Positions 1,969 through 10,583 of a DNA stretch of 10,583 nucleotides are shown here, piece by piece. A model generated the notes under the pieces. It was not told the DNA's origin. It searched no databases and was given only the letters and a program-made list of their open reading frames with translations. The position numbers were made by a program, and so were the translations under genes. This DNA is from Oscillospiraceae bacterium. Its GTDB lineage: Bacteria > Bacillota_A > Clostridia > Oscillospirales > WRJC01. Every line of letters begins with the position of its first letter. Within the stretch, counting starts at the first letter, position 1. The stretch is taken from the NCBI GenBank assembly GCA_009785015.1, contig WQXD01000105.1:1-10583 (forward strand), given 5' to 3'.

Positions 1969-3027
1969 TTATTTGTAATATCTGTCTATTTTTATGGATT
2001 CGCCCGTCGCGTCCGATTCGAATATCGCAGTCATGACCTGCAGCACTTTACGCGCTTCTTCGGGCTTTACGATCAACTGCTCTTTTCCGTCCAGAACGGC
2101 GAGCACATTGTGGTAATAGTCGGCCCAGTCGGTTTCCACTTCCGGCAGCGGCACTTCCTCAAGCGTCTCTTTCGGCCTGGGGGCCATCGTCCTGGTGGGG
2201 CCGCCTTCGGTCTGCACCACTTCCTGCGTCCATTCCATTTCAAAATCCTTGGCGTGAGTGAGCCTGCCTTTGCCGTCCATCCCATTGATCACAAGCGCGC
2301 CCCCGTCGCCGCATACATACCAGCGCGGCAGCCTTTCGAGGTTGTACGTGCCCACTTCGATCTGCGTCGAGAGCCCGCTGTCAAACCTTATGACGGCTTT
2401 GAAATAGTCGTCCACTTCGGGCGTTTTTACCATATGCAAATTGGCGTATACTTCCGCGACCGGTTCCTTGATCATCCAGAGCATCTGGTCGATCATGTGA
2501 ACGCCCCAGTCGAAAACCATCCCGCCGCCCGCGACTTTGTAGGCGCGCCAGCCGTGCATGACGCCGTTCTGGCCCATGATGCGCGACTCGATCGTGTAAG
2601 GCTTGCCCACGAGCCCCGTGTCAATCGCCTTCTTGACTATCAAAAAGTCCTTGTCCCAGCGCCTGTTCTGATGTACGGTGAAGAGTTTGCCTGTCTTTTT
2701 GGAAGTCTCGTACATTTCGTCGAAATCGTCGATATTCATCGCCACCGGTTTTTCGCATATCACGTTCTTTCCCGCTTCGAGCGCCGCGATTGTCATGGGT
2801 TTGTGGAAATTGTTCGGAGTCGCCACAAGTACCATGTCAAAACTCTCGTCAGCCAAAAAATCCTCGAGCTTTTCATAAGCTGTAAGCCCCCTGGCCTTGG
2901 CGGCAACTAACCTTTCCGGATTTATGTCATAAGCGGCCACCACTTCGAAGTCCCTTATCCTCTTTGAATTTTCGTGATGCCATCCGGCCATTCCGCCGTA
3001 ACCGATTATACCCATTTTATGTGCCAT
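1969..3027 (-). CDS. Gfo/Idh/MocA-family NAD(P)-dependent sugar oxidoreductase (second copy)
   Basis: A 352-residue cytoplasmic dehydrogenase of normal family length. The Rossmann glycine motif is GYGGMA (residues 9-14), and Asp34 at the end of the second strand favours NAD(H). TPNNFH (70-75) and the family hallmark EKP (92-94, catalytic Lys93) follow. The substrate-site motif DWGVHMID (173-180) supplies the conserved Asp and His177. Members interconvert sugar or polyol hydroxyls and ketones. Its start follows AGGGGTGA with about 8 nt spacing. It is third in the operon, 31 nt after the TIM-barrel gene. It differs clearly from the 366-residue paralogue at 4106-5206, so the two probably act on different substrates or in opposite directions. 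Family certain; substrate unknown. Confidence 0.93.
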   Translation of the reverse strand: MAHKMGIIGYGGMAGWHHENSKRIRDFEVVAAYDINPERLVAAKARGLTAYEKLEDFLADESFDMVLVATPNNFHKPMTIAALEAGKNVICEKPVAMNIDDFDEMYETSKKTGKLFTVHQNRRWDKDFLIVKKAIDTGLVGKPYTIESRIMGQNGVMHGWRAYKVAGGGMVFDWGVHMIDQMLWMIKEPVAEVYANLHMVKTPEVDDYFKAVIRFDSGLSTQIEVGTYNLERLPRWYVCGDGGALVINGMDGKGRLTHAKDFEMEWTQEVVQTEGGPTRTMAPRPKETLEEVPLPEVETDWADYYHNVLAVLDGKEQLIVKPEEARKVLQVMTAIFESDATGESIKIDRYYK

Positions 3028-3058
3028 TTAAAAATCACCCCTTTATTTTTTTATTATT

Positions 3059-4027
3059 TTACGCCCACGAAATTTCCGTGGGTTTGGCTTCGAAAATCAT
3101 CGCCTGTTTTAAGAAATAGATCGCCTTTTCAAGCCCTTCCTTGGGGCTCATCAGCGAATCCTCGTGCTCTATGCTCATCACGTGGTCATACCCCACAAGC
3201 CTGAGCGCGCTCACGATGTCGCGCCACACCTGCATATTGTGGCCGTAGCCGACGGTCCGGAATATCCATGAGCGGCCTATTTCGTCGGTGTAATGTTTTG
3301 TATCGAGCACGCCGTTTGAAGCGGCGTTGTAGGCGTCAACCGCCGAATCCTTCGCGTGGAAATGGAAAACCGCCGGCCCCAGGTCCTTGATGGCTTTTGC
3401 CGGGTCTATCCCCTGCCAGAACAGGTGCGAGGGGTCGAAGTTCGCGCCCATGGTCTTGCCGTCTACGGCTTCCCTGAGTTTCAGCATCGTTTCGGGGTTG
3501 TAGACGCAGAAGCCGGGGTGCATCTCGAGCGCGATTTTTGTGACGCCGTGGTTGTTGGCGAATTCCGCCGTTTTTTTCCAGTACGGTATCAAAACGTCGT
3601 TCCACTGATATTCCAAAATATCCAAAAAGTCCGGCGGCCAGGGACAGGTCACCCAGTTGGGGTATTTCGCGCCGTCGAAGTCCCCCGGGCAGCCCGAAAA
3701 GGTTATCACCGTGTCCAAATTCAACTTTTCGGCCAGGAGCACCGCTTTTTCAAAATCATCGTGGAAACTTTTGGCCAGCGCCTTGTCGGGGTGCACGGGG
3801 TTCCCGTGGCAGGACAGCGCGCTTATTATCATGCCGTTGTCCGCTATCATGTTTTTGAAATCCTTTAATTTGGCCCCGTCCGCCAGCAGAAGGGAGGGGT
3901 CGCAGTGTTTGGTCCCGGGGTAGCCTCCGCAGCCGAGCTCGACCGCCTGCACGCCCAAACCGGAAAGGTATTTCAGCGCCTGCTCGACCGGTTCGCTCAG
4001 TATCACCGTTAATACGCCTAATTTCAT
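3059..4027 (-). CDS. Sugar phosphate isomerase/epimerase-like TIM-barrel protein (xylose isomerase-like)
   Basis: A 322-residue cytoplasmic protein of the AP_endonuc_2 / xylose-isomerase-like fold. Likely divalent-metal ligands are spaced as in the family: Glu168 (in ALEMHP), Asp198 (in NFDPSH), His224 (in HFHAKD) and Glu287 (in SIEHED). His201 and Lys226 sit in the usual active-site positions. Relatives include inosose dehydratase and inosose isomerase, tagatose epimerases, and lyases that split 3-keto-glycosides by elimination. Lying between two Gfo/Idh/MocA genes, it could act on a keto-sugar made by one of them; this is inference. The ATG is preceded by AAGGAG at 8 nt. The upstream dehydrogenase gene is 78 nt away, and that gap holds a GC-rich hairpin (4068-4088). 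Fold sure; reaction not determinable from sequence. Confidence 0.9.
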   Translation of the reverse strand: MKLGVLTVILSEPVEQALKYLSGLGVQAVELGCGGYPGTKHCDPSLLLADGAKLKDFKNMIADNGMIISALSCHGNPVHPDKALAKSFHDDFEKAVLLAEKLNLDTVITFSGCPGDFDGAKYPNWVTCPWPPDFLDILEYQWNDVLIPYWKKTAEFANNHGVTKIALEMHPGFCVYNPETMLKLREAVDGKTMGANFDPSHLFWQGIDPAKAIKDLGPAVFHFHAKDSAVDAYNAASNGVLDTKHYTDEIGRSWIFRTVGYGHNMQVWRDIVSALRLVGYDHVMSIEHEDSLMSPKEGLEKAIYFLKQAMIFEAKPTEISWA

Positions 4028-4067
4028 ATGAAAATCTCCTTATTTAAATCATTTGGAATTTCGTTTC

Positions 4068-4088
4068 GGGGCGGCTTTTCGCCGCCCC
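4068..4088. other. Intercistronic GC-rich hairpin
   Basis: GGGGCGGC (4068-4075) and GCCGCCCC (4081-4088) form a perfect 8-bp stem with a 5-nt loop between the first and second genes of the minus-strand operon. On the coding (-) strand no T run follows, so it should not stop the operon fully. On the + strand five T residues follow (4090-4094), so it would terminate antisense transcription. A role in mRNA processing, 3'-end protection or partial attenuation is possible. Confidence 0.6.
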
Positions 4089-4105
4089 CTTTTTCGACAA
4101 TTGCG

Positions 4106-5206
4106 TCAATTCGAGAAATAGAAAGGTTTGCCCGTTTTTGCGGATTCGTATATGCCCTCTAAAATCAAAGACACCGCATACGCCTGCTCAGGCAGCACAA
4201 ACGGCGCCGTATCGTTGATCACGGCGTCAATCCAGAGTTTTGCCTCCCTGTCCGAAGGATTGTCCGCCGCTCCGTCGTAAAAAGCCACGCCGCCCGCGTC
4301 GAGCCCCGGGGTCAAAACGTACTGCCTGTTGTTTTTTACGCCGTTCAGCCTGATTTTGCCCTGGTCGGGCATATCGCCGCCCCCCAAGGTGCCGCAGACC
4401 GAAGTGACTGCTTCCCTCACATCCAACGAGTTCAGCGCCCACGAGGATTCAAGATAAATCGTCGCGCCGTTTTCCATCACGATGAAGCCGAAAGCGGAAT
4501 CCTCGACTGTGAATTTGGCGGGATCCCAGTCGCCCCAGGCGTTGCCGGACTGGGTCTGGTTGTTCAATTTGTGGTAGGTGGTGCCCACGCAGTATTTGGG
4601 CTTATAGTTGTCCATGATCCAGAGCGTCAGATCGAGCGCGTGGGTGCCGATGTCTATGAGCGGCCCGCCGCCTTGTTTTTCACCGTCCAAGAACACCCCC
4701 CACGTGGGGACGGCTCTTCTTCTGATGGCGGTGGCTTTGGCGTAGTAGATATCGCCGAAAGTCCCGGCGTCGGCTTCCGCTTTGAGGAACAGGGAATCGC
4801 CCCTGTGGCGGTTCTGGTACCCGATGGAGAGTTTTTTGCCGGATTTAGCCGCCGCTTCGACCATTTTTTTGGCTTCTTTGGCCGACGCCGCCATGGGTTT
4901 TTCGCACATGACATGTTTGCCCGCCGCAAGGGCGTCGCAGGTTATGGGCGAGTGCATGTTGTTGGGGGTCAGCACATGGACGACGTCTATCGCTTTATCC
5001 TCCAACAGTTTTTTATAGCTGTCCGCGCCCACATAGAGCTTGGCGTCCGCGGAGCCGTATTTTTTGGCGGCCGCCTTGACTTTTTCCTCCTCCAGGTCGC
5101 AGAAGGCGACCATTTCGACGTTTGGGAGCTTGGCGAGTGACGGCATGTGTTTTCCGTTTGCGATGCCTCCGCAGCCTATGATACCGATTTTGAGTTTTTC
5201 TGCCAT
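4106..5206 (-). CDS. Gfo/Idh/MocA-family NAD(P)-dependent sugar oxidoreductase (first gene of operon)
   Basis: A 366-residue cytoplasmic dehydrogenase. The N-terminal Rossmann part has GCGGIA (residues 11-16), Asp37 ending the second strand (NAD preferred), TPNNMH (80-85) and EKP (102-104, catalytic Lys103). The C-terminal alpha/beta part carries DIGTHALD (185-192), with the conserved Asp185, His189 and Asp192 of the substrate site. ATG and a strong GGAGG with 9 nt spacing fix the start. It is the first gene of the operon and faces the divergent carbohydrate-binding gene across 265 nt. A likely role is oxidising a sugar or glycoside (or reducing a keto-sugar) in the pathway shared with the next two genes. 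Relatives include inositol, glucose-fructose and levoglucosan dehydrogenases; I cannot choose among them. Family certain, substrate unknown. Confidence 0.93.
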   Translation of the reverse strand: MAEKLKIGIIGCGGIANGKHMPSLAKLPNVEMVAFCDLEEEKVKAAAKKYGSADAKLYVGADSYKKLLEDKAIDVVHVLTPNNMHSPITCDALAAGKHVMCEKPMAASAKEAKKMVEAAAKSGKKLSIGYQNRHRGDSLFLKAEADAGTFGDIYYAKATAIRRRAVPTWGVFLDGEKQGGGPLIDIGTHALDLTLWIMDNYKPKYCVGTTYHKLNNQTQSGNAWGDWDPAKFTVEDSAFGFIVMENGATIYLESSWALNSLDVREAVTSVCGTLGGGDMPDQGKIRLNGVKNNRQYVLTPGLDAGGVAFYDGAADNPSDREAKLWIDAVINDTAPFVLPEQAYAVSLILEGIYESAKTGKPFYFSN

Positions 5207-5471: not shown

Positions 5472-6752
5472 ATGAAATTCACAAAATTCTCAGCAGGCCT
5501 ATGCGCGACAGTTTTAATTTTTATGCTCATCCCCGCTATCACCGCGAGCGCGGAGCCGTTCGCCGAGATCAAAATCGCGCCCAACGTCCAGTCGGTTATC
5601 AAAGCGGTGGAATTTGACTCAAACCCCGATTACAACTGGAAACCGGATTGCGACGGCGGCAAGGGCGTCAGGCCCGACGAGCTCGTGGACACGGAAACCG
5701 GCGCCGGCGTTGCCGAAGATTTCGACGGCAATATCGGCTGGACCGATCACGGCACATGGGTGCAATGGACGGTAAACGTCGAGGCTGACGGCGATTACCG
5801 GTTTGAAGCGTGGTGCGCTTCGGACAACGGCTCCAACGAAGGGCTTTCGCTGCTGTACGACGACGCCCCGATCGGCAGTATCGATCATGTGGAACAGGAA
5901 GGCTGGCAGGAATATTCGCTCTATAAGTTCGGCGATATCGCGATGACGGCGGGAACGCACGTCATAAAAGCCGAATGGCCGGCCGTCGGCGGTTTCAATA
6001 TAACCGCGATCATAGTCACCCCGCTTGTCAACGGCTATCCCCTTTGGATCCCCGTAGAGCACAAAATCGCCTCAAGCGGCACAAACAGGATCGGAGCGGT
6101 GGATTTCGACCCGGGGGTCAACGGTTTTTCATTCGATGAAGGCGGCGCATCCGCGGTCAGGCCGGACGAAAAAGTCAACACCGAATTCGGAAATGAAACA
6201 AGCGGCGCCACATACAGCGGATATACCGGCAATATCGGCTGGATAAGCGCGGGCGACTGGGTGCAGTACACCGTATCCGTGGCGCGCGAGGGCATGTACA
6301 ACTTTGAGACCTGGCTCGCCTCCGACGCGGACCCCACGGGCGGAATCAAAGTATATGTGGGCGAAAATGAAATCGGGACTTCGCCCGATTCGGCCAAAGA
6401 CGGCTGGCAGTCCTATGCCAAATATCCCGTGGGCGAAGCGGCGATGGCCGCGGGCGACTATGTGATAAAAGTCGAGTTCACCGGCGGGTGCAATTTCGCC
6501 GCCTTGGAAATAACGAGAACGGGCAATATACCCGAAGAGGCTCCTCCGGCAACCGAAGCCGAAGCTCCGGCAAAGGGAGATGAGACAGACGCCGCCGCGA
6601 CCGGCGAAGGCGATTCGAATACCGCCGTCGACGAAGAGGAAAGCGGCAGCAACCTGGTGCTGATTATCATAATAGCCGCCGCGATAGTCGTGGTCGTGGT
6701 GGTTATAGTGGTCATAATGGTCGCGGGCAAAGGCAAAAAAGCAAAAGAATAG
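5472..6752 (+). CDS. Exported, membrane-anchored protein with two CBM6-like modules
   Basis: A 426-residue surface protein. Residues 1-27 are a Sec signal peptide with two Lys, a hydrophobic core and ASA before the likely cut after Ala27. Two homologous beta-rich modules follow, about 44-185 and 208-350. Each has NIGW (87-90; 254-257), a W-V-Q-W/Y-T strand (96-100; 263-267), GWQ-x-Y (144-148; 311-315), a T/A-A-G-x-(H/Y)-V-I-K strand and a C-terminal F-N/A strand, the pattern of CBM6-type carbohydrate-binding domains. Residues 351-394 are an acidic Pro/Ala/Glu/Thr linker. Residues 395-418 are an unbroken Leu/Ile/Val helix followed by GKGKKAKE, anchoring the protein with the modules outside. 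There is no catalytic domain. It is divergent from the dehydrogenase operon, suggesting shared control and a role in holding glycan at the cell. The CBM family and ligand are inferred from pattern only. Confidence 0.82.
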   Translation: MKFTKFSAGLCATVLIFMLIPAITASAEPFAEIKIAPNVQSVIKAVEFDSNPDYNWKPDCDGGKGVRPDELVDTETGAGVAEDFDGNIGWTDHGTWVQWTVNVEADGDYRFEAWCASDNGSNEGLSLLYDDAPIGSIDHVEQEGWQEYSLYKFGDIAMTAGTHVIKAEWPAVGGFNITAIIVTPLVNGYPLWIPVEHKIASSGTNRIGAVDFDPGVNGFSFDEGGASAVRPDEKVNTEFGNETSGATYSGYTGNIGWISAGDWVQYTVSVAREGMYNFETWLASDADPTGGIKVYVGENEIGTSPDSAKDGWQSYAKYPVGEAAMAAGDYVIKVEFTGGCNFAALEITRTGNIPEEAPPATEAEAPAKGDETDAAATGEGDSNTAVDEEESGSNLVLIIIIAAAIVVVVVVIVVIMVAGKGKKAKE

Positions 6753-6864: not shown

Positions 6865-6949
6865 CGCTTTGGTCGGGTTTGGTTTGCGCCGTCGCCGCTT
6901 CAAATAAATTATCGTGCGAAAAATAAATAAAAATATTTCCAACAAACCC

Positions 6950-6979
6950 AACCTTTCGCTTTTCGATTTCGTCTATATA
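6950..6979 (+). promoter_or_regulatory. Possible ECF-type promoter before the sigma-factor fusion
   Basis: AAC at 6950-6952 is followed after 17 nt by CGTC (6970-6973) and TATA, resembling the AAC / CGTC pattern of promoters read by many ECF sigma factors. Transcription would start about 40 nt before the ATG at 7019. A sigma-A alternative uses TATAGT (6976-6981) but lacks a good -35. Autoregulation is common among ECF factors. The match is short, so chance is a real possibility. Confidence 0.3.
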
Positions 6980-7002: not shown

Positions 7003-7012
7003 TGAAGGGGGG
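7003..7012 (+). promoter_or_regulatory. Ribosome-binding site fixing the start at 7019
   Basis: The purine run GAAGGGGGG ends 6 nt before the ATG at 7019. The frame is open back to a GTG at 6914, but no ribosome site precedes that codon, and the residues it would add do not belong to the sigma domain. Confidence 0.75.
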
Positions 7013-7018
7013 TTAAGC

Positions 7019-10000
7019 ATGTATGGGAGCTGCACAGCCGAAGAAACAGACGAAGCTCTAATAGAATCCACTCTGTATGGTGACAACGACGCTTTTAACC
7101 AGCTTGTGCTGCGTTATCAGCGTACTGTTTTCTCTGCGGCTTATTCTGTGTTGAGAAACGTCCATTTGGCAGAGGACATAGCGCAGGACGCATTTTTAGC
7201 CGCGTGGCAAAAACTCAATACCTTAAAAGAACCGGATAAATTTGGTTCATGGGTTTATCATGTTGCTTCAAACAAAGCCAAAGACTATCTCAAAAAACAT
7301 AGAGAAAGCATTAGCCTTGAACATATGGAACACACGGTTGCAGATAACGCCTATAATCCGGAAAGCCTGTTCTTTCCCGGCACTTACGACAGTCTGCACG
7401 AAGCTGTTGAAAACTTGTCCGAAAAGCTCAGAATCGCAATAAAACTCCATTACTTTGAAGCTTCATCTATTGAAGAAATTGCCCGACAATTGAAAATATC
7501 CGCCGGAACAGTAAAATGGCGGCTTCATGAAGGGCGCGAAAAAATAAGAAAGGGTATGATGCAAATGTCAAAACAAGCTAAAAAAATCACCGCCGAGTTA
7601 TTGGGTGAAATGGCGCAAATCCGAGAACGGTATAACCGTTCAAACGAGGGTTTTGAATCAGACTACAAAGCTATACTGGCAAAAATCAACGATATGCCGG
7701 AAACGCCGGAAGTGCACTACTGCCTTGCCGAATGGTTGGAGCAGGGGTATATCCGCTTACCGCTATGGAAAAAGCCGGGTATAGACGAAATAGCGGAAAC
7801 AGCTGAAAAAGGCAATCATACTGCGTTACTGGGGCGTATGTGGGAAAAAGAGTGTGAAAAACTCTACGGAAGCCAACTAAGGGATTATTTCAAAGACAAG
7901 CTGATACCTCGCATGGAAGAAGCGGGTATGACGGAATCTTTGGGGCGTATGTGGATTAGAGTCGGGGACGGTCACCGTTGGGACAACGAATATGACAAAA
8001 GCTATGAAGCCTTTCAAAAAGCCCTTGAACTCCTGCCCCCACACAGCACCGACAGAGCGGAAGCGGCAGCCGTTATGGGTATGTGGGAACTGTTCAAGGA
8101 GCATGGCTATAGTTGGACAAAAACGAGGACAATCAACATCGGCATACCGTTAATAGTGCGCGACGGCCGGCTCATTGTTAAAAACGGTACTCAAAGTGCG
8201 TCCGATGAGGAAGCGAATCCATTTATCCACGCCGCATTGTGCGACAGTATATTATTCGACAACCGATTAAAAATAGGCGAATCCATCATCAGTCACGACG
8301 GTACCGTGACTTTGACTTATGACAGCCAAACCGCCGACGGTTGCGCGCTCTGGATTACCAAAGGCTTGAACGTCGACGTTTCCGCATACTACAAATCTGG
8401 TATCGGATTGGTTGCCATAAACGTTTTGGCAAAGGGCTATAAAATGCACTTAAAGCTGAAATCCCACACAATCGTAGGCGGCGAAGGACTGATGCCGCTC
8501 CATGAAGGCAACGTATGGGAATATGATGACGGACGCAACCCCGAACACTTTGCTTTACATAATCGCTATGAAATAATTAGCACGAGCGAAAATGAAGCCA
8601 TTGTGTCTGCCGCTTACTTCCGGCAAAGACTATCATATGACCAAAATAGCTGGGATGACAATATACTTGAAATGCGTTATGGATATAACAACGAAAACAA
8701 GCTGATTGATGTATCGGAAAGCATGAACCGCGCCGCGAAACTGGCAGCTACTCCTTACCAAAAACTACATACGCAAGTGGCAAATGAAGTAATGGAGCGC
8801 ATTTTCAAAGGCGATACCAATTATACGCCGGACGGGGATTTTTCGGGGCATTGGAATTTTTTCAGCACTTTCAAGCCTTATATCCAAAATGACAAAATTT
8901 TATGTTCAGGCGGTTGGGGAGCATATTCATTTGAATGGAAAAACTTGGACAGCAGTGACGCGGCATATCCGCTTCTGGGGACGTTTATGCTGGATATGTT
9001 CAAAAGTGCCGTAGGTTGTTTTTGGTGCTATGACTGGAAGCCGGGCGTTAAAATGACGATGGAGGGTAATGTACATAATAATAAAACCGTAACCGAAGTA
9101 ATCGTGGAAGATGCCGGAATGATTGAAACCGCCGCAGGCAGATTCGGTAATTGCCTGAAAGTTTTCCTCGATGTAAAACAAAACGGACGTTATACTTCGG
9201 ATTATTTCACGGGTGAAAAAGAGTATTACTTCGCTCCCGGAATCGGCATCGTAAGGAGCGTCCATCATTTTAAGCAAGGTAAAATCAACACCGTATATGA
9301 CCTTACAGCTTATACGGGAGCGGGGAGCGGTTATATGCCCATCGAAGCGGGCTTATTCCGCCGCTATGAAGCTCAAAACCTCACCGGCGGATATGTCGGT
9401 AAAGTTGAATTGACCTTTTGCGACGACGATAACAGGGCGCGCAAAATTCTTGAAAACAAAACAGGCATAAGAAGCCCAAGAAAATCGTTCTCGGAGTTGG
9501 ATTGGGACGACAATATAATTCAATTGGCGCAAGAATATTGTGACGGCAACAGCTTAAAAGATGTAAGCGCCACTATGAAGCGCGTAGAAGCATTGGCAAA
9601 CACACCATACCGCAAACTATACGCCGACGCCGCCATTGATTATATGAACCGTATTTTTGAAGGTGATGCCGGATATACAAATAACGGCAGATTCTCCGGG
9701 CATTGGGACTTCTTTCAGCCTCGTGATATAACCATAGAAAACGGAAAAATCCAATTATCCGAGTATGACGGCACTTATGCCTTCGAGTGGAAAAGTGTAA
9801 ACAGTGACATTGACGGCTGTTATTCACTCCTCGGAAACAATTTATTGGATTTTCTGATGTATGGAACCGGCTCTATATGGCGCGATGAATGGAAGCCCGG
9901 CGTAACCATGACTATGGAGGGCAATGATTATTGGCAGATAACCGCGCAAATAACCGTTACCAAAGCGGGTACGGTTGAAACCGCCGCCGGAAGGTTTGAA

Positions 10001-10354
10001 AATTGCATAATGCTTTCACTCGACGCAAAAGGGGCTAATGTCAGCGGATTCGTTGAATATCTTGTCGGTAAAAAAGATTACTGCTTCGCTCCCAAAATCG
10101 GGATAGTCAAGTTAGTCAATCATTTCAAAGACGGTAAACTGCAAACCATTTATGAATTGACGGGCTACGAAGGCACGGGGGAAGGCTATATGCCTGTAAA
10201 TCCGGGCTTGTTCCGTCGCTATGAAGCCATTGGATTAACGGGTGGTTATGCGGGTAAAACGGAGTACACTTTCTGTGAAGATGACAGCGGGCAATTAAAA
10301 GTCATTGAAAACCGCACAGGGATTAGAATATTCGATTCCGCTTTGGCTGAATAA
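7019..10354 (+). CDS. ECF sigma factor fused to a large C-terminal region with a duplicated beta-rich module
   Basis: An 1111-residue soluble protein; ordinary ECF sigma factors are about 160-220 residues. Residues 24-95 are sigma region 2, with the AEDIAQDAF helix (51-59) and GSWVYHVASNKAKDYL (76-91). Residues 124-179 are region 4, a helix-turn-helix around IEEIARQLKISAGTVKWRLH. It should therefore bind RNA polymerase and promoter DNA. Residues 185-365 are helical, with a TPR-like stretch near 320-360. Residues 370-486 look beta-rich. Residues 490-1111 contain a module repeated twice with a 284-285 residue offset. I see no signal peptide or membrane helix, so the whole protein should be cytoplasmic. 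No anti-sigma gene adjoins it. It is AT-richer than the upstream genes (23 G+C in 7201-7260 against 38 in 5701-5760), hinting at separate origin. Sigma call firm; the role of the C-terminal part is unknown. Confidence 0.85.
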   Translation: MYGSCTAEETDEALIESTLYGDNDAFNQLVLRYQRTVFSAAYSVLRNVHLAEDIAQDAFLAAWQKLNTLKEPDKFGSWVYHVASNKAKDYLKKHRESISLEHMEHTVADNAYNPESLFFPGTYDSLHEAVENLSEKLRIAIKLHYFEASSIEEIARQLKISAGTVKWRLHEGREKIRKGMMQMSKQAKKITAELLGEMAQIRERYNRSNEGFESDYKAILAKINDMPETPEVHYCLAEWLEQGYIRLPLWKKPGIDEIAETAEKGNHTALLGRMWEKECEKLYGSQLRDYFKDKLIPRMEEAGMTESLGRMWIRVGDGHRWDNEYDKSYEAFQKALELLPPHSTDRAEAAAVMGMWELFKEHGYSWTKTRTINIGIPLIVRDGRLIVKNGTQSASDEEANPFIHAALCDSILFDNRLKIGESIISHDGTVTLTYDSQTADGCALWITKGLNVDVSAYYKSGIGLVAINVLAKGYKMHLKLKSHTIVGGEGLMPLHEGNVWEYDDGRNPEHFALHNRYEIISTSENEAIVSAAYFRQRLSYDQNSWDDNILEMRYGYNNENKLIDVSESMNRAAKLAATPYQKLHTQVANEVMERIFKGDTNYTPDGDFSGHWNFFSTFKPYIQNDKILCSGGWGAYSFEWKNLDSSDAAYPLLGTFMLDMFKSAVGCFWCYDWKPGVKMTMEGNVHNNKTVTEVIVEDAGMIETAAGRFGNCLKVFLDVKQNGRYTSDYFTGEKEYYFAPGIGIVRSVHHFKQGKINTVYDLTAYTGAGSGYMPIEAGLFRRYEAQNLTGGYVGKVELTFCDDDNRARKILENKTGIRSPRKSFSELDWDDNIIQLAQEYCDGNSLKDVSATMKRVEALANTPYRKLYADAAIDYMNRIFEGDAGYTNNGRFSGHWDFFQPRDITIENGKIQLSEYDGTYAFEWKSVNSDIDGCYSLLGNNLLDFLMYGTGSIWRDEWKPGVTMTMEGNDYWQITAQITVTKAGTVETAAGRFENCIMLSLDAKGANVSGFVEYLVGKKDYCFAPKIGIVKLVNHFKDGKLQTIYELTGYEGTGEGYMPVNPGLFRRYEAIGLTGGYAGKTEYTFCEDDSGQLKVIENRTGIRIFDSALAE
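8636..9472 (+). repeat. First copy of the duplicated module (residues 540-818)
   Basis: This coding repeat carries, in order, WDDNI (545-549), TPYQKL (578-583), FSGHW (608-612), WKPG (673-676), ETAAGRF (703-709), FAPGIGIV (738-745), MPIEAGLFRRYEA (773-785) and NKTGIR (813-818). All recur in the second copy. Only this copy has C-x-x-C (Cys667, Cys670). The E-T-A-A-G-R-F-x-N-C and F-A-P-G-I-G-I-V pattern recalls beta-sheet domains seen in exported proteins, which would be unexpected in a cytoplasmic protein. Confidence 0.85.
9488..10327 (+). repeat. Second copy of the duplicated module (residues 824-1103)
   Basis: The same ordered motifs return: WDDNI (829-833), TPYRKL (862-867), FSGHW (892-896), WKPG (958-961), ETAAGRF (987-993), FAPKIGIV (1023-1030), MPVNPGLFRRYEA (1058-1070) and NRTGIR (1098-1103). 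The protein ends eight residues later. The DNA copies have diverged clearly, so the duplication is not recent. The C-x-x-C of copy one is absent here. Confidence 0.85.
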
Positions 10355-10480: not shown

Positions 10481-10498
10481 ATAAATGGGGCTTTTCTT

Positions 10499-10583
10499 AG
10501 CCTCCCTTGCTAAAGGGAGGGGGACCGCCGCGGCGGTGGGGGGATTGGGAACCTGATTCCGAAATGGTAATTCTACAAATGCG
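10499..10583. repeat. Left part of a palindromic intergenic repeat element
   Basis: CCTCCCTT/AAGGGAGG (10501-10508 with 10513-10520, loop GCTA) is a perfect hairpin, followed by the 14-bp palindrome ACCGCCGCGGCGGT (10524-10537) and GGGGGGATTG. From memory this layout resembles the non-coding 'CCTCCCT...AGGGAGG...GGAGGGATTG' repeats found many times in clostridial gut genomes, usually with a mirrored right half. The window ends before that half. Confidence 0.6.

What the first reader, a model, noticed from the sequence alone, without database searches (positions are those of the whole stretch)
7019..10354. A sigma factor with a very large built-in C-terminal region: candidate one-protein signalling system
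Regions 2 and 4 of an ECF sigma factor (residues 24-179) are followed by more than 900 residues in one uninterrupted frame: a helical TPR-like part, a beta-rich part and a duplicated module. No anti-sigma gene adjoins it and no membrane helix is seen. ECF groups with C-terminal extensions (SnoaL-like or TPR) are known to be controlled by them, but the extension here is far larger and of a type I do not recognise. It may sense a cytoplasmic ligand or protein state directly.
Basis: partly seen in the sequence, partly recalled or inferred. Interest (0 to 1): 0.72.

Follow-up and report, generated by a model that had tools for sequence, protein, structure and literature searches.

The report
Sigma factor fused to sensor-like repeats
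This bacterial gene encodes one long protein that joins a gene-switching sigma factor to a large soluble tail of helical repeats and three pocket-like domains, a conserved combination that probably lets the switch sense its signal by itself without a separate inhibitor protein.

Summary
One ORF (7019-10354, +) encodes 1111 residues: ECF sigma regions 2 and 4, ten helices of TPR-like type, then three DUF3108-like beta modules. It is no assembly fusion: 30 sigma-fused proteins, the window's included, keep this order. No membrane helix is seen. The tail type is identifiable: DUF3108_like above Pfam cut-off, a profile match to 4fvs and 3fzx, and a weak fold match to YmcC/LolA-type half-barrels. 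I read it as an ECF sigma factor with a built-in soluble sensor, of a composition not named in the review sections read. An AACC-N16-CGTC element before the gene suggests autoregulation. Unexpected: the only Met kept in 30 of 30 lies at the end of the sigma domain, behind a Shine-Dalgarno-like stretch here, and a sigma-less relative (P0042) starts at that Met; the tail may also be made alone. Signal, ligand and inhibition are inferred, not shown.

The parts
6950..6975 (+). ECF-type promoter-like element AACC-N16-CGTC(TA), candidate for autoregulation
   Evidence: consensus recalled; only match of CAAC-N15..18-CGTC in the window (1.28 expected on both strands), 45 nt before the ATG
7005..7014 (+). 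Shine-Dalgarno-like stretch of the gene
   Evidence: duplex -15.6 kcal/mol with a recalled 16S tail, the best of 60 in-frame start-type codons
7019..10354 (+). sigma-sensor fusion gene, 1111 aa
7019..7564 (+). ECF sigma domain (residues 1-182; region 2 at 29-95, region 4 at 124-176)
7565..7567 (+). Met183, kept in 30 of 30; possible internal translation start
   Evidence: P0042 starts at the aligned Met
7571..8104 (+). TPR-like helical part (residues 185-362)
   Evidence: TPR_2 below Pfam cut-off here
8123..8476 (+). short DUF3108-like module 1 (residues 369-486)
8480..9328 (+). DUF3108-like module 2 with helical insert (residues 488-770)
9329..10183 (+). DUF3108-like module 3 with helical insert (about residues 771-1055)
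10184..10351 (+). C-terminal half-module (about residues 1056-1111)

Best explanation
A one-component ECF sigma factor. The N-terminal sigma2-sigma4 domain recruits RNA polymerase to ECF-type promoters, probably including its own. The soluble tail is its regulator: a TPR-like helical adaptor sits next to sigma4 and carries tandem DUF3108-like modules of the YmcC/LolA type, half-barrels that in their best-studied relatives hold hydrophobic ligands. Ligand or partner binding to the modules would move the adaptor against sigma2/sigma4 and so allow or block polymerase binding. Shown: fusion, order of parts, conservation, no TM segment, domain type. Inferred: cytoplasmic place of the tail, ligand, conformational switch, its direction (inhibition or activation), autoregulation.
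Confidence: 0.5

Rival explanations
1. The gene makes two products (compatible with the best explanation): the full sigma-tail protein and, from Met183, the tail alone. The free tail would act in trans, for instance as a decoy sensor or anti-sigma-like inhibitor, setting the level of active sigma.
For: Met183 is kept in 30 of 30 although the top residue of the other columns 174-210 averages 15.4 of 30; the next best Met column (of columns with 25 or more residues) is 25 of 30. In 28 of 30 it stands three residues after [RK][KE][EGD], codons that can spell an SD (counted). The Met183 ATG has the second strongest upstream duplex of 31 in-frame ATGs (-12.4, against -15.6 for the true start; the six other genes' starts in the window -6.9 to -14.6). 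P0042, 870 aa and 58 member sequences, begins at the aligned Met and has no sigma part. 0 of 16 other extended ECF proteins have Met in that column, nine of these being near copies of one another.
Against: The core SD pairing is -9.2 and shared with M180/M181; the rest of the -12.4 comes from extra pairs after a small loop. A control against it: Met773, inside a module motif and the next best kept Met (25 of 30), has the third best duplex (-11.2), so a kept Met with an SD-like stretch can arise without a start. No Val or Leu (GTG/TTG starts) among 30, which a start site would be expected to allow now and then. Relatives' DNA could not be read. P0042 may be a frameshifted or miscalled gene.
Confidence: 0.2
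2. The tail is a docking platform: TPR-like part and modules bind partner proteins (as proposed for ECF42), and the signal comes from a partner and not from a small molecule.
Against: TPR score is below Pfam cut-off in the window protein; most of the tail is beta modules of a fold known for pockets.
Confidence: 0.3
3. The tail does not regulate: the sigma is controlled by its own transcription, and the tail has another job, such as tethering.
For: An ECF-type promoter element lies upstream; transcriptional control of ECF factors is known (PMC8999054 table).
Against: The fusion is kept across highly diverged members with correlated trees.
Confidence: 0.12
4. Assembly or annotation fusion of separate genes.
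For: One sigma-less relative (P0042).
Against: 29 other fused proteins in separate 90%-identity clusters (27-88% identity to the window protein for the 23 aligned); open frame with one strong start; P0042 nests inside the fused clade, grouping with P0018, support 0.909.
Confidence: 0.01

Closest known systems
ECF42 (ECF sigma with C-terminal TPR extension)
   Same: ECF sigma followed directly by TPR-type helices; tail thought regulatory
   Different: ECF42 tail is about 200 residues (PMC8999054); here the helical part is followed by about 740 residues of beta modules; no PF20239 match
ECF41 (ECF sigma with SnoaL-like extension)
   Same: tail in cis, no anti-sigma, conformational control (PMC8999054)
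   Different: no SnoaL match, no WLPEP motif in residues 1-320 of 30 members
DUF3108_like (PF21347) and the proteins 4fvs (putative lipoprotein) and 3fzx (putative exported protein)
   Same: core of the module by sequence profile and, weakly, by fold
   Different: those two are short chains of about 215 residues, said to be exported or lipoprotein, without a sigma factor
RseB/MucB
   Same: weak fold similarity; a half-barrel that feeds lipid signals into an ECF sigma pathway (PMC7400510 passages)

Membership tests
ECF sigma factors | regions 2 and 4 only, both recognisable | tested here: met
   r2 60.9 bits, r4_2 47.8 bits; TIGR02937 100.1 bits over cut-off 42.9
ECF41 | WLPEP motif in the sigma2-sigma4 linker | tested here: not met
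   absent from residues 1-320 of 30 of 30 members; motif from PMC3426412 passage
ECF41 | SnoaL-like extension | tested here: not met
   no SnoaL model among the 15 families at E up to 1
ECF42 | TPR-rich extension | tested here: inconclusive
   TPR_2 17.4 bits, cut-off 27; TPR-like helices in model
ECF42 | PF20239 (DUF6596) region (recalled as an ECF42 mark) | tested here: not met
   no PF20239 at E up to 1 in the window protein
ECF42 | DGGR-type motif (recalled; no paper found) | tested here: inconclusive
   absent from residues 1-320 of 30 members, but also from P0039, the one PF20239-bearing protein at hand
ECF238/CorE | CxC motif and cysteine-rich tail after sigma4 | tested here: not met
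   no CxC in residues 1-320 of 30 members; the rest of the tail was not scanned for it
ECF48/52/53 (fused membrane anti-sigma) | transmembrane helix in the tail | tested here: not met
   maximum 19-residue Kyte-Doolittle mean 1.26 in the window protein; highest in the family 1.96 (P0023)
ECF262 (Ruminococcus albus, extension of a kind not stated in the table read) | group profile and extension | not testable with these tools
   named in PMC8999054 table; classification paper not held
DUF3108_like (PF21347) | profile score over cut-off | tested here: met
   37.5 bits, cut-off 27, two stretches
LolA/LolB/RseB-type half-barrels | same fold | tested here: inconclusive

The most novel reading that the evidence does not exclude
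A sigma factor that carries its own cytoplasmic RseB/LolA-like sensor array in cis, and that also releases the array as a separate protein from a conserved internal start, so that one gene encodes sigma, sensor and trans-acting inhibitor or buffer.
Probability: 0.13. Interest if true: 0.8.

Novelty: new variant of a known kind. Interest (0 to 1): 0.52.

Why it matters
ECF sigma factors are usually held by membrane anti-sigma factors; tails that take over this role are known in some groups, and those whose size the review part read gives are 120 to about 400 residues. A conserved tail of about 930 residues with repeated pocket-type modules would be a ready-made one-protein switch whose sensing part varies in number and end between relatives. 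The conserved internal Met gives a simple test of whether sigma and sensor can also be made apart.

Tried and rejected
Assembly fusion: rejected (30 fused proteins). L001 (Chlamydiae MAG) is a spurious 15-residue match: its ORFs are an FtsH-like ATPase (my reading of its motifs) and an unrelated protein. Viral contigs: one match in the sigma part alone, L002, and none for the tail or P0042. Plasmids: no match to P0042. PF21347 in G001 and in 14 control genomes rang nowhere, so that answer shows nothing. NCBIfam gave no named family over cut-off for the tail pieces or P0042. Foldseek alone gave no match under 1e-3 for module 2. The whole-model fold search was filled mostly by sigma structures. 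The strict promoter pattern was written after seeing the sequence, so its 0.04 expectation is not a fair test; the looser pattern is expected 1.28 times in the window, or about 0.006 in any 100 nt of one strand (my arithmetic), and it too was chosen after seeing the site. Papers: 8 of 10 searches used; 'DUF3108' gave 4 papers, none on sigma factors by title and abstract start; 'ECF42' with 'DGGR' gave none. That I know of no paper on this fusion rests on the listings; subscription papers are mostly not held, and the main ECF classification paper was not.

Full report
OBSERVATION. The frame 7019-10354 on the + strand is open and gives 1111 residues. Its ATG has the best Shine-Dalgarno-like stretch of all 60 in-frame start-type codons. 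The sigma regions are beyond doubt. Behind them the AlphaFold model (mean pLDDT 82.6, pTM 0.55) has ten helices at 185-362 and then beta modules; the links at 95-123 and 179-187 are under pLDDT 50, so the placing of the tail relative to the sigma domains is not known.

FAMILY. Three protein searches gave 22, 25 and 16 rows; only about 8000 candidates were scored, so counts are lower bounds. Thirty distinct rows, the window's own included, carry sigma plus this tail. The other rows of the first two searches (P0022, P0026-P0040) cover 5-18% of the query and carry sigma domains with other tails or none named. Of the 16 rows, eight are sigma-fused (two known before), one is a sigma-less tail of 870 aa (P0042), and seven are partial tails, of which five lie on contigs under 2.3 kb, one (P0050) on a 17 kb contig and one (P0043) has no contig given. 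The fused proteins fall into forms with module 1+2, with modules 1+2+3, and with modules 1+2 plus a helical end; one (P0004) ends in a TPR array (the letters of P0047 were aligned but not read by eye). P0005, P0012 and P0024 are cut shorter or lie on short contigs. Identity to the window protein is 27-88% for the 23 relatives. Source names, where given, are Oscillospiraceae and Eubacteriales MAGs; the window's own organism is not known. Trees of the sigma part and the tail (29 fused rows, P0024 left out) share 13 of 26 splits, against at most 3 in 500 shuffles. No relative's DNA could be read, so gene neighbourhoods other than the window's are unknown.

THE CONSERVED METHIONINE. In the alignment of 30, Met183 is the only Met column kept in all; the next best, Met773, has 25 of 30. 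It lies in the link after sigma4, where the commonest residue of the other columns 174-210 averages 15.4 of 30, and at a fixed distance from an [RK][KE][EGD] triplet in 28 of 30. P0042 starts at this very Met and groups inside the fused clade with P0018 (support 0.909), so the sigma-less form looks derived. In the window AGAAAGGG stands 10 nt before that ATG. Against it: Met773, which sits in a module motif, also has a strong SD-like duplex (-11.2, third of 31), so the pairing of kept Met and SD-like stretch is not proof; there are no GTG or TTG variants; only one DNA sequence was seen; and the -12.4 leans on pairs outside the usual SD core. I hold internal translation at about one in five.

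PROMOTER AND NEIGHBOURS. CAAC-N17-CGTC lies at 6949-6973, before the gene; this is the ECF type of promoter as I recall it. Upstream on the same strand is a carbohydrate-binding (CBM6) protein with a C-terminal hydrophobic stretch, 266 nt away; further off lies an oppositely directed set of GFO/IDH oxidoreductases and a TIM-barrel gene. Downstream the contig ends after 229 nt without a convincing ORF.

MECHANISM. By analogy with ECF41, where removing the end of the tail raised promoter output and removing all of it abolished it (PMC3426412 passages), and with ECF42, where TPR tails are thought to take a partner's signal (PMC8999054, first part of section 3.5), the tail is most likely the regulator. 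The module type suggests a pocket. MucB, whose half-barrel is of the LolA-like kind, binds lipid A and feeds this into the AlgU pathway (PMC7400510 passages). That analogy is of fold only, and weak; a cytoplasmic ligand here is a guess.

PLACE AMONG KNOWN SYSTEMS. It is an ECF sigma factor by the defining regions. It fails the tested marks of ECF41, CorE and the membrane-fused groups, and the recalled PF20239 mark of ECF42; the recalled DGGR mark proved no use, as the PF20239-bearing P0039 lacks it too. PMC8999054 speaks of at least 26 groups with extensions; ECF262 from Ruminococcus albus could be near but could not be tested, as the classification paper is not held. I therefore call it a new variant of a known kind.

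Noticed in passing
5472-6752 +: Protein with CBM6 matches in two stretches (and a CBM35-type match), a signal-like N-terminus and a C-terminal hydrophobic stretch (by eye), on the same strand upstream of the sigma gene.
   Followed up: partly
1969-5206 -: Two GFO/IDH/MocA oxidoreductases around a xylose-isomerase-like TIM-barrel gene, likely one sugar-type operon.
   Followed up: no
1594-1923 -: Lone Hpt phosphotransfer domain protein; none of the other five neighbours scanned is a kinase.
   Followed up: no
332-1507 +: F420-0:gamma-glutamyl ligase family protein in what may be a Clostridia contig, judged by the names of relatives of the sigma protein.
   Followed up: no
10497-10540: G-rich stretch with an inverted repeat (ctcccttgctaaagggag) followed by ccgccgcggcgg after the gene, possibly a dispersed repeat.
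   Followed up: no
P0029-P0035: ECF sigma proteins of about 620 aa with PF03793 (PASTA, name recalled) and PF13308 matches; in P0029 a hydrophobic stretch lies between sigma and tail: another fused-sensor design.
   Followed up: no
P0022 and P0026: ECF sigma domains at the head of a 1377-aa and a 974-aa protein with several repeat-type Pfam matches.
   Followed up: no
L002: 4.5 kb IMG/VR contig with an ECF-like sigma match of 31% identity.
   Followed up: no
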